NCBI GenBank assembly: GCA_009619075.1
Contig: WJOY01000047.1
Span: 1 to 41,975 of the forward strand
DNA from: Dehalococcoidia bacterium
GTDB lineage: Bacteria > Chloroflexota > Dehalococcoidia > GIF9 > AB-539-J10
DNA: 41,975 nucleotides
Reading direction: 5' to 3'
Shown here piece by piece: positions 230 through 3,253 of this stretch (position 1 is its first letter; the number at the start of each line of letters is the position of its first letter). Both the position numbers and the translations under genes were made by a program. A model generated the notes under the pieces. The model saw only the letters and a program-made list of their open reading frames with translations, did no database searches and was not told the DNA's origin.

Positions 230-303
230 ATGTAACATTTCGGGCTTTGCGAAGTGCCGAAGCATTTGGGCGAACGAAGTGAGCCGCAAAGCCCGTGTTA
301 GGC
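230..303 (-). repeat. attC-like imperfect palindrome (11-bp perfect stem 241-251/285-295, 33-nt loop, core-site-like ends)
   Basis: CGGGCTTTGCG at 241-251 pairs with CGCAAAGCCCG at 285-295. GCCTAAC (minus, 303-297) matches RYYYAAC. GTTACAT (minus, 236-230) matches GTTRRRY with one mismatch. Confidence 0.6.
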
Positions 304-316
304 GAAGTTTTTGGAC
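297..316 (+). repeat. Inverted repeat copy 1, GTTAGGCGAAGTTTTTGGAC
   Basis: Inverted partner of 3234-3253, 19/20 identical. Confidence 0.9.
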
Positions 317-367
317 CACCTTGTCGAAGATAATGTTCCCTTTTTTCTTTACTACCATGCAATTTGT

Positions 368-3214
368 TCATTTCACGGAAGAACTAAAATAAGGTTCCAC
401 ATTCACCGCATAATCTCTCTCTGTAATGTCAAAGAATACTTGATCACCAATTTTCAATTTTCTAAACAATCCTTTTGTAGACTTACTGGAACGAAAACGA
501 TAAGTTGCACTTTGGCTTTTTATAATCCCATTCTCATTTTCATAATCAATATCTGTGATGTGACCGATACAGTCTTTATTTCTCAAATATAAGGGCTTTT
601 TGATCGGTGGATTATTGAAAAAAGTCCAATATTTCTCTTCCTTGTATGGATTTAACCGGATCGCTTTCTCCAGAAAATCTTTTGCGTCTGGTCTCCTGGC
701 AAGTTTAAAACAGACAGCTACTTCACTCAATAGCCTGCCTGAACGATTGAATTTCTCAGATGCTTTCTCAAAAAACGTTACCGCACTGGTTAGATCATAA
801 CTTCTGAGGAGACGGCCATATTCTTCGGCAAGTTGCGGAGAAAACAGACGGCAGCCAAGTTCATCAACAAACTCAACTCCTTCCTGATACCGCCCCATTT
901 GAAAGCAGGCATTCAGATAGGTAAGAATTAAATACTCATCAACCTTGTCAAACTGACATTGATTAGTTCGCACATAGGTTAAAATTATCTCCTTAGCATG
1001 CCGGAACAAGCCAATCGCGATGTAAACCCTTGCCAACTCATTCCGAGCCTGAAGACTGTTGGGATCCAATTTCAACAGGTCATTCAACACCTTCTCTGCT
1101 TCAGGATATTTCTCCTGGGCTTGATACACCCTTGCCAGTTCAGTACGAGCGTGTAGGTCTTCGGGCTCCAATTTCAACAACTCATTCAGCACCTTCTCTG
1201 CTTCAGGATATTTTCCAAGCAGAAACTCCATTTTACCTGTCTCTAGAATGGCAGGTAGAAAGGTCGGATGACTATCCATGACTGATTTGAAGATATTTTT
1301 AGCAACTGCGAAATCACCTTTCAGATATTCTATCCACCCTACCATCATCATGACATTCCTTTTGGTCGCAGAGTGCCTTGCAGCTTTCTGTTGGATGTAT
1401 TCCAGTTCATTTTTGTTCAGGCTGGTAAAATATTTTTTCACGATGGATTTGCGTCTCAGCAGGCTATTAAAAATAGAACTTTCATATGTGTCGTCTACAT
1501 CGATTGCATTCAATAGAGTGACCAGACGTTGGTGGATTGTGGGCTTTAACTTTTCTTCAATGTACCATTCTGCAAGTAGCTCATGCCGTGTCCTCACAAT
1601 ATTCCCTTCCAAAATAAGCGGCAGGTTTTCATACTCAGCGCTATTGAAAAAATCCTGAAAATTATAATATTCGCTCTCGTCAAAGTTCGTCATGACTTTC
1701 TTTAAAAGCGACACTGGCATTACCAAGCCAAGCTGATAGATGATGGATACCCATTTGTACATATCGGATAAACTTCGTAGCTGTAGGGTGTGGATGACAT
1801 TATCAAAATCCACCCAGTCCATGATAAAGCCCCTATATCGGCTGCTGCTGGTTTTTTTACAAAAATTTATGACCGCTTCGGCAAGAGAAATATCAGGTTT
1901 TTCAAAATAAGCTTCTCTTGCCAAATCACGATCAATGCCAGTCAATTCTAGAGCTTGAATGAAAGAGCGGCATACTCTTTCTTTGAAAATCATGTCCCGG
2001 TTATCGATATATATTTTCAGCGAGCCCCTTTCGGCAAGGTCAAGCAAGTAGTCTTCCTCTTCTGCCTCACGGCGTCTTATCTCACGTTCAAACAGGAGGA
2101 AGACACATCTGAAATTCTGGTAATAATCATCAAAGTGTCTTAGAAGATTGCCAATATGTTCCAATTTTGCTGTTGGATTGTCTATAAAAATCAGCAAAGT
2201 TTTGTAATCACTACTATCCAATCCAGCATTGTGAAGATGATAGATCTTTTTAAAATAATCCTCGTAATCTACTATCCTCGAATTTTCATCTAGGTTCAAG
2301 GTATTGATAAGGATAACTGGGAACCCCTTAAGGGCAAAGTCCATAGCAGTTCTGTTCATTTGAGTTGTTTTGCCACAGCCAGGAGCGCCGAGAATCCAGA
2401 TGGAAGCTATTCCACTATCTACTTCATTAAAAGTGCTGTTGATTTGACTATCCAGGCGCTCGTTTCTTACATCGATATCGTTACATACCACCTTCCAGAT
2501 ATATCTATCAGATGAATTCAGCTTGAAATAGTTTTCCCGGATTTTGGCTAGCTTATTGTTATCTGTTTCCCTAGAATTCTGAATTGAATGAGGAGTAATT
2601 CTCCTGACCCCAGGCAGAATTCCTTTATGAACAACCCGTTCCTGAAACTCGTCATACGCATGTCTGATAGAATTTCTTAAATGAACTAGAATATCTTCCA
2701 GTAAATATTCAGCAGGAATACCGCGGATATTGTCGGGAACATCTGCTTTAAATAGATTGTAGATTTCAGGAAAGTGTTTGAATAAATCGAGGTATAGTCC
2801 AGCTTTATCCTCAAATTTGCCTTCTCTAGCCCAGTTTACAAAAGCAAAAGGATACTGCCCACAGTATTGATTTAAAAGTTCCTGAAGATCATTTCCGAGA
2901 TAGCGAAGTGGCGAGAACAATATCCAATAATCTGGGTTGAAGAGTGATTTATTTAGCTGTTCTGGTTTGCCCTCAAACTCATGGGGATTAAGCACGTTAA
3001 CTGATCTTGCGCTCTTACATTCAACAAAAAAGTTAACGTTAATATCTGTAGTACTGGCAGGCCGAGCTTTAAAGAAGATATCAAACCCACTCTGTGATCC
3101 ACTGCACCTAATAGTTTCCTCGATGAGGTCAAAACCCATAAGAGGGAATAATCTTTTAAATAACTCCAGGGTTGCGTTTTCGAATCTGGAGCCGATTGTC
3201 TGGGAATTAGTCAT
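368..3214 (-). CDS. Multidomain protein: N-terminal PD-(D/E)XK/Mrr-like nuclease domain, STAND-like P-loop NTPase, TPR repeats, C-terminal cold-shock/OB-like domain
   Basis: 948-aa ORF. GFDIFF...FFVECK (D...ExK); Walker A GAPGCGKTT; Walker-B-like LLIFIDN; tandem TPRs (GKYPEAEKVLNELLKLEPEDLHARTELARVY); C-term GHITDIDYENENGIIKSQ...LKIGDQVFFDI. GGAGAG Shine-Dalgarno upstream of the ATG. Confidence 0.8.
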   Translation of the reverse strand: MTNSQTIGSRFENATLELFKRLFPLMGFDLIEETIRCSGSQSGFDIFFKARPASTTDINVNFFVECKSARSVNVLNPHEFEGKPEQLNKSLFNPDYWILFSPLRYLGNDLQELLNQYCGQYPFAFVNWAREGKFEDKAGLYLDLFKHFPEIYNLFKADVPDNIRGIPAEYLLEDILVHLRNSIRHAYDEFQERVVHKGILPGVRRITPHSIQNSRETDNNKLAKIRENYFKLNSSDRYIWKVVCNDIDVRNERLDSQINSTFNEVDSGIASIWILGAPGCGKTTQMNRTAMDFALKGFPVILINTLNLDENSRIVDYEDYFKKIYHLHNAGLDSSDYKTLLIFIDNPTAKLEHIGNLLRHFDDYYQNFRCVFLLFEREIRRREAEEEDYLLDLAERGSLKIYIDNRDMIFKERVCRSFIQALELTGIDRDLAREAYFEKPDISLAEAVINFCKKTSSSRYRGFIMDWVDFDNVIHTLQLRSLSDMYKWVSIIYQLGLVMPVSLLKKVMTNFDESEYYNFQDFFNSAEYENLPLILEGNIVRTRHELLAEWYIEEKLKPTIHQRLVTLLNAIDVDDTYESSIFNSLLRRKSIVKKYFTSLNKNELEYIQQKAARHSATKRNVMMMVGWIEYLKGDFAVAKNIFKSVMDSHPTFLPAILETGKMEFLLGKYPEAEKVLNELLKLEPEDLHARTELARVYQAQEKYPEAEKVLNDLLKLDPNSLQARNELARVYIAIGLFRHAKEIILTYVRTNQCQFDKVDEYLILTYLNACFQMGRYQEGVEFVDELGCRLFSPQLAEEYGRLLRSYDLTSAVTFFEKASEKFNRSGRLLSEVAVCFKLARRPDAKDFLEKAIRLNPYKEEKYWTFFNNPPIKKPLYLRNKDCIGHITDIDYENENGIIKSQSATYRFRSSKSTKGLFRKLKIGDQVFFDITERDYAVNVEPYFSSSVK

Positions 3215-3233
3215 GCTTCTCTCCGGAAGTCAC

Positions 3234-3253
3234 GTCCAAAAATTTCGCCTAAC
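3234..3253 (-). repeat. Inverted repeat copy 2, GTTAGGCGAAATTTTTGGAC on the minus strand
   Basis: Inverted partner of 297-316, 19/20 identical. Confidence 0.9.

What the first reader, a model, noticed from the sequence alone, without database searches (positions are those of the whole stretch)
230..3253. Solitary integron-type cassette structure around a large nuclease/NTPase gene
Read on the minus strand, the unit has the layout expected of an integrated gene cassette: junction G|TTAGGC, 38 nt to a gene with a Shine-Dalgarno, one gene in the expected orientation, then GCCTAAC - 11-bp stem - loop - stem - G|TTACAT. The right-hand core site is imperfect (GTTACAT), as expected if its last six bases belong to the flank. 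Circularising at the two G|TT points gives a perfect GCCTAAC...GTTAGGC pair, extended by GTCCAAAAACTTC / GAAATTTTTGGAC. Removal leaves a simple junction (plus strand ttatgtaa|cttgtgcataa). Cautions: the spacers between core site and stem (1 and 4 nt) are shorter than in textbook attC sites, the 3.0-kb size is large for a cassette, and no intI is in the window.
Basis: partly seen in the sequence, partly recalled or inferred. Interest (0 to 1): 0.85.

Follow-up and report, generated by a model that had tools for sequence, protein, structure and literature searches.

The report
Gene cassette of an unusual integron
The segment is a single mobile gene cassette, carrying a probable defence gene, sitting in the capture site of a decayed integron-like platform whose recombinase lacks the domain thought essential for integrons; the same platform occurs in many bacterial phyla, some archaea and, mirrored, in phages.

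Summary
The layout is confirmed. Window 236-3252 (minus strand) is one gene cassette: G|TT junctions, a 948-aa nuclease-like/STAND/TPR gene, and a folded attC-type site at 230-303. A covariance model built without this site finds it at 76.4 bits (E 1.8e-17). It is not a stray insertion. Its left end lies in an attI-like site (3251-3298) beside cimA. A sister allele and a same-genus genome carry other cassettes at that spot, and the allele's right junction matches the window's exactly. The adjacent recombinase is decayed in the allele and missing in the window.

Followed outward, the same site class sits directly downstream of, and co-oriented with, a Xer/XerA-like tyrosine recombinase in many bacterial phyla and in archaea (15 of 15 eligible close relatives). 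That recombinase lacks the IntI-specific insert (58-61 versus 100 residues between two motifs). Its attI is preserved, and 18 of 21 first cassettes match their own attC core 7/7. IntI over cut-off is absent from the window's own genome and from 19 of 24 host genomes. Canonical-attC and new-site models are mutually blind. Large phages carry a mirrored version.

Best reading: a remnant of an IntI-less, integron-like system. Function is inferred, not shown.

The parts
236..3252 (-). Integrated gene cassette, 3017 bp, G|TT to G|TT
   Evidence: Sequence; IR; right flank homologous to the sister allele C1 from exactly G|TTA onwards, 88.6% over 229 bp, although C1 carries other cassettes
368..3214 (-). 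Cassette gene, 948 aa: nuclease-like N-terminus (GFDIFF..FVECK, PD-(D/E)XK-like, inferred), STAND/P-loop NTPase (~237-390), TPR repeats (~600-870), C-terminal beta domain
   Evidence: Pfam nSTAND_NTPase5 and TPR families; 12 homologues; AlphaFold model pLDDT 72.8; Foldseek top hits SAMD9 and a STAND-TPR protein, weak TM 0.2-0.3
230..303 (-). attC-like site in integrated form (236-303 belongs to the cassette); folds on the strand opposite the gene as a three-way junction
   Evidence: R1 76.4 bits E 1.8e-17; R2 60.8 bits E 3.1e-14; both models exclude this site
297..303 (-). R''-type core GCCTAAC
   Evidence: pairs with GTTAGGC after circularisation
230..236 (-). R'-type core in integrated form GTTACAT (last six bases are flank)
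285..295 (-). L'' arm of the 11-bp stem
   Evidence: covarying stem in the class
241..251 (-). L' arm of the 11-bp stem
3251..3298 (-). attI-like insertion site ACCCCAAATTGGAGTAGTATTTGCAGTTCGGTTATGCACAAG|TT
   Evidence: Weight matrix from 17 sites next to recombinases in other genomes: best of all positions in the window, 19.6 bits (second 15.5; best of 20 random windows 18.9)
3307..4902 (-). Left neighbour: cimA-like (HMGL/LeuA_dimer) gene next to the attI-like site
   Evidence: synteny in relatives
1..36 (+). Right neighbour: 3' end of a SagB-type nitroreductase gene
   Evidence: Same sequence downstream of cimA in relatives G017, G019, G004, G018 and in C1, G002

Best explanation
The unit is an integron-type gene cassette captured at the attI-like site of a chromosomal platform beside cimA. 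The platform belongs to an integron-like system that works with a Xer/XerA-like tyrosine recombinase lacking the IntI-specific (I2) insert, and with a distinct class of attC-like sites. Inferred mechanism: a circular cassette folds its bottom-strand site into a Y-shaped hairpin; the recombinase cuts at G|TTRRRY and joins it to the attI-like site lying shortly (mostly 72-121 bp) behind its own gene. Shown by sequence: cassette boundaries, site class, the attI-like site, alternative cassettes at the same spot in a sister allele and a same-genus genome, association of this site class with this recombinase family, and absence of the IntI insert. Inferred: that this recombinase performs the reaction, that single strands are the substrate, and that the window lost its recombinase by deletion (a middle-deleted copy remains in the sister allele, and only its last codons in G002). 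The cassette gene is probably a STAND-type defence protein (inferred from architecture only).
For: Site. Covariation 100 two-sided cells vs 38+-5 shuffled, and a G.T wobble in 19 of 21 sites that pairs only on the bottom strand. Same spot, other cassettes. attI: 18 of 21 platforms have a 7/7 match of the first cassette's own core 45-149 bp after the recombinase stop; matrix scan. Association: found first with R1, which is built only from sites of the window's own family; with R2, 47 of 54 sites are downstream and co-oriented, and all 15 eligible loci L158-L183 are positive, 8 of them not used for R2. Controls: 0 sites in 20 XerC/D-type and 11 IntI loci and in 5 class-1 plasmid arrays. Missing insert: profile aligns to IntI 2a3v in two pieces with 42 residues absent; motif distance 58-61 in all family members vs 100 in all 9 IntI measured. 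IntI over cut-off in 1 of 85 genomes of the order, 4 of 396 of the class, 5 of 24 host genomes of such platforms.
Against: No activity is shown. Nearly all genomes are draft MAGs, so a missed IntI is possible. Five of 24 host genomes do carry IntI, and G239, which has IntI on another contig, also holds 10 sites of this class. The recombinase in the window's own lineage is broken (C1) or gone. R2 was trained partly on the loci it was then counted on (R1 was not). R3 rests on only 7 sites, so its silence is weak evidence. IntI is placed beside the attC-associated clade with only 93% SH-aLRT support in a quick tree.
Confidence: 0.8

Rival explanations
1. Ordinary IntI integron cassette: the cassette and its site are substrates of a canonical IntI that was lost, unbinned or acted in trans; the Xer-like gene is a bystander.
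For: Same overall layout; literature shows IntI1 can recombine diverse archaeal attC sites (PMC9668308); some hosts carry IntI; G239 has IntI and sites of this class.
Against: No IntI in the window's genome, 1 of 85 in the order and that one on a high-GC, contaminant-like contig. Sites cluster right behind the Xer-like gene and its attI in phylum after phylum but not at 11 IntI loci. The canonical model does not see them.
Confidence: 0.14
2. Off-target (attG-like) insertion of a cassette at an arbitrary genomic GTT.
For: G|TT junctions; secondary-site insertion of cassettes is described (named in PMC12901181).
Against: The left junction is the best attI match in the whole window, and two relatives hold other cassettes at the same spot.
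Confidence: 0.03
3. Transposon or MITE with 20-bp terminal inverted repeats and a subterminal hairpin.
For: 20-bp inverted ends.
Against: No target duplication. The neighbouring alleles have different ends at the same point. The repeat is explained by core box plus the GAAAT motif that follows it in most cassettes. The hairpin lies outside the inverted repeat, at one end only.
Confidence: 0.02
4. Chance hairpin, terminator or structured RNA downstream of a normal chromosomal gene.
For: Stable hairpin after a stop codon.
Against: E 1.8e-17 to a site family; no Rfam family; strong covariation including the core boxes; alternative genes at the same junctions.
Confidence: 0.01

Closest known systems
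Integron / gene cassette system with IntI integrase (mobile class 1 integrons; sedentary chromosomal integrons; archaeal integrons of Ghaly et al. 2022, PMC9668308)
   Same: Recombinase gene next to attI; one-gene cassettes ending in a folded site; RYYYAAC/GTTRRRY cores; G|TT insertion; bottom-strand fold; arrays of unrelated genes
   Different: Recombinase lacks the IntI-specific insert; sites fold as a three-way junction with conserved GAAGT/ATTTGGG elements and are not seen by a canonical-type model; recombinase co-oriented with the array (mirrored in phages)
XerA/XerC-type tyrosine recombinases (NCBIfam NF040815; PDB 4a8e, 5hxy)
   Same: Core domain over the NF040815 cut-off in the closest intact homologue; no insert
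   Different: Extra N-terminal domain (RWHPEEKYWSFP); sits beside attI and cassettes; best PDB profile match is still IntI 2a3v
CALIN (clusters of attC sites lacking IntI) as defined by IntegronFinder (PMC9024848)
   Same: attC-like sites without intI
   Different: Here a specific non-IntI recombinase is next to the array; the window holds only one site
STAND NTPase defence proteins / SAMD9-like proteins
   Same: Effector-like N-terminus, P-loop NTPase, TPR sensor-like repeats
   Different: Only a weak structural match (TM about 0.3); no PADLOC family reached better than E 0.0045

Membership tests
Canonical integron (IntI type) | IntI integrase with the IntI-specific (I2) domain | tested here: not met
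   TIGR02249 below cut-off and split at the insert; 42 residues absent against 2a3v; motif distance 58-61 vs 100
Canonical integron (IntI type) | attI next to the recombinase gene | tested here: met
   attI-like motif behind the recombinase in other genomes, in C1 and at the window junction
Canonical integron (IntI type) | Cassette ending in attC with RYYYAAC/GTTRRRY cores and G|TT exchange point | tested here: met
Canonical integron (IntI type) | attC recognised by a canonical attC model | tested here: not met
   R3, 7 canonical-type sites: no hit in window or in 6 platform loci at E<=1; it finds further sites in IntI locus L264. IntegronFinder/HattCI not available
Canonical integron (IntI type) | Recombination of the bottom strand as a folded single strand | not testable with these tools
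   Only indirect: bottom-strand G.T wobble in 19 of 21 sites
IntI-less integron-like platform (proposed here) | NF040815-like recombinase beside attI and Y-shaped sites | tested here: met
   Met in other genomes and, with a decayed gene, in C1; in the window itself the gene is absent, attI and site remain
Transposon / MITE | Terminal repeats with target-site duplication | tested here: not met
   No duplication at the two junctions; different cassettes at the same point
STAND defence protein | STAND NTPase with effector and sensor domains | tested here: inconclusive
   Pfam nSTAND_NTPase5 E 8.9e-7 but below its cut-off; TPR clear; fold match weak; anti-phage activity not tested

The most novel reading that the evidence does not exclude
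A widespread second kind of integron exists in bacteria, archaea and large phages. It captures cassettes with a tyrosine recombinase that lacks the I2 insert and recognises Y-shaped attC-like sites. It is either a living relative of the pre-I2 ancestor of IntI or a parallel solution, and it accounts for part of the attC arrays now filed as lacking an integrase.
Probability: 0.6. Interest if true: 0.93.

Novelty: new variant of a known kind. Interest (0 to 1): 0.85.

Why it matters
The I2 helix is described as necessary for cassette capture and as found in no other protein, and IntI evolution as lacking intermediates (PMC7790495). Cassette arrays next to recombinases without it would make the origin of integrons directly testable. 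They would also suggest why archaeal surveys found 539 attC sites but six IntIs (PMC9668308), and they would enlarge the known cassette pool, since tools require the IntI domain. In the window the system carries a large STAND-type gene, consistent with cassettes as carriers of defence genes.

Tried and rejected
Plain GCCTAAC counts are uninformative (68 hits, equal to the reversed control). TIGR02249 hits in the own genome are Xer-like, none over cut-off. The one IntI of the order, G065:C218, lies on a high-GC contig with an N-terminally extended IntI and was judged probable contamination. De novo core/stem search found few canonical sites at IntI loci. First canonical alignment A5 was too gappy and was replaced by A7. 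AlphaFold of the recombinase had pLDDT 66.6 with 9 sequences and was not used. phmmer of the 948-aa protein against PDB hits only TPR proteins, mostly designs. No held paper describing attC arrays beside I2-less recombinases was found; preprints and most subscription papers are not held, so novelty is not proven.

Full report
1. The observation. The window is the whole contig C16 of a 0.94-Mb draft genome. The described parts are there: inverted ends 297-316/3234-3253, one 948-aa gene, a hairpin between the two G|TT points. The cassette proper is 236-3252 on the minus strand. No Rfam family matches.

2. Is the hairpin an attC-like site? A search of the 53 genomes of the family with the circularised site found relatives in 11. 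They share cores of the form RYYYAAC/GTTRRRY, which vary in step (GTATAAC..GTTATAC, GCCTAAC..GTTAGGC), plus a common stem. A covariance model of ten of these, without the window's site (R1), finds window 230-303 at 76.4 bits, E 1.8e-17. It finds 64 sites in 27 of 85 genomes of the order, 9 of them in the window's own genome.

3. Where does the cassette sit? In relatives (G017, G019, G004, G018) cimA is followed directly by a SagB-type nitroreductase gene whose 3' end is window 1-36. In the window the cassette lies between the two. Contig C1 of the same bin ends in a cimA copy 96% identical in protein, so it is a second allele, strain or near species. There cimA is followed by a middle-deleted tyrosine recombinase, the motif ATGAACAAG|TT, three other cassettes, and sagB. 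The flank behind the last cassette is 88.6% identical to the window's, beginning exactly at G|TTA. G002, of the same genus, has the last codons of the recombinase, the same motif, and yet other cassettes, among them a nucleotidyltransferase/HEPN-like pair. The spot is thus a cassette array with exchangeable contents, and the window holds one cassette.

4. The recombinase. IntI over its cut-off is absent from the window's genome. It occurs once in 85 genomes of the order, on a contaminant-like contig, and in 4 of 396 genomes of the class. The C1 remnant's closest intact homologue, P0016, passes the XerA-like model NF040815 and fails IntI. A profile of the group matches IntI (2a3v) best in the PDB, but in two pieces that leave out 42 residues. 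The distance between the KGxKDR and HxLRHS motifs is 58-61 in every family member measured and 100 in all nine IntI measured. In a quick tree IntI stands beside the attC-associated part of this family (support 93) and apart from XerC/D.

5. The association is general. Eighty loci of P0016 relatives were fetched from named genomes of many phyla, including archaea. R1, made only from the window's own family, found arrays next to them, co-oriented and downstream, for example five sites behind the recombinase of an Altarchaeum genome and similar arrays in Atribacteria, Aminicenantes, Deferribacteres and a Methanoperedenaceae archaeon. A second model with the three-way-junction fold (R2) gave 54 sites at E<0.01; 47 are downstream and co-oriented, although upstream sequence is 1.8 times longer. 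All 15 loci among L158-L183 with at least 1.5 kb downstream are positive, 8 of them not used to train R2. Controls: none in 20 XerC/D-type loci or 11 IntI loci, none in five class-1 integron loci. Of 24 host genomes searched, 19 have no IntI over cut-off.

6. The attI-like site. For 18 of 21 platforms the sequence GTTRRRY that matches the first cassette's own core 7/7 lies shortly behind the recombinase stop (72-121 bp in most), preceded by a small palindrome and a TATAYGAACAAG-like motif. A matrix from 17 of these sites ranks window 3251-3278(-), the cassette's left junction, first among all positions on both strands (19.6 bits; second 15.5; best of 20 random windows 18.9). It also ranks first the predicted junctions in C1 and G002.

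7. The fold. The structure is supported by 100 cells changed on both sides against 38 +- 5 in shuffles, none of 500 as high. One helix pair is G.T in 19 of 21 sites on the strand opposite the gene; on the other strand it would be A.C. This points to the bottom strand as the folded form, as in classical attC. A model of canonical-type sites (R3, 7 sequences) finds further sites in an IntI array but none in the window or in six platform loci, while R2 finds none at IntI loci. R3 is small, so this is suggestive only.

8. The gene. The protein has a nuclease-like N-terminus (inferred from GFDIFF..FVECK), a STAND-type NTPase and TPR repeats. Twelve homologues of 860-1460 aa exist. The predicted fold resembles, weakly, SAMD9 and a STAND-TPR protein. 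A defence role is inference.

9. How it likely works, and what is not known. By analogy with integrons, cassettes circulate as circles, fold, and are joined to attI by the neighbouring recombinase. No experiment supports this yet. Contrary facts: five host genomes also have IntI, and one genome of the same class with IntI (G239) holds ten such sites on other contigs; nearly all genomes are drafts. Against what is known, the I2 helix is held to be necessary for cassette capture and unique to IntI, and integron finders require it. I found no held paper describing this arrangement, but preprints and most subscription papers were not searchable.

Noticed in passing
L275-L354 (viral contigs), e.g. 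L280:340-5451, L284:543-4752: Large phage contigs carry relatives of the recombinase without the IntI insert. R2-type sites occur in 39 of 74 loci; 71 of 73 lie upstream on the mirrored strand, with genes running against the site orientation.
   Followed up: partly
G000:C1:60877-61164 vs window 3307-3600: The bin holds two alleles of the cimA region (about 91% nucleotide identity): strain mixture or a near-species contaminant.
   Followed up: partly
L043:1276-2690 (C21): Another solitary cassette-like unit (419-aa gene) between ybeY and mutS, with a site ending G|GGC instead of G|TT: decayed junction or off-target insertion.
   Followed up: no
L171, L182, L173 recombinase genes; G000:C1:59960-60787: Several platform recombinases are broken by stops or deletions, as if platforms decay often while cassettes persist.
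   Followed up: no
L173:7034-10357: A Dehalococcoidia contig carries a second run of sites in opposite orientation to the recombinase-proximal one.
   Followed up: no
G198, G239, G269, G295, G303 (family f64): Class relatives with 4 to 11 R2-type sites each; G239 also has a true IntI on another contig.
   Followed up: no
L214, L215, L221, L169, L186, L212: Bacteroidota and other loci have longer (about 120-192 nt) sites that match R2 weakly; a longer subclass may exist.
   Followed up: no
window 236-316 and 3234-3252: The 13-bp extension of the core repeat is only partly explained by the common GAAAT motif; why this cassette's ends match so far is open.
   Followed up: partly
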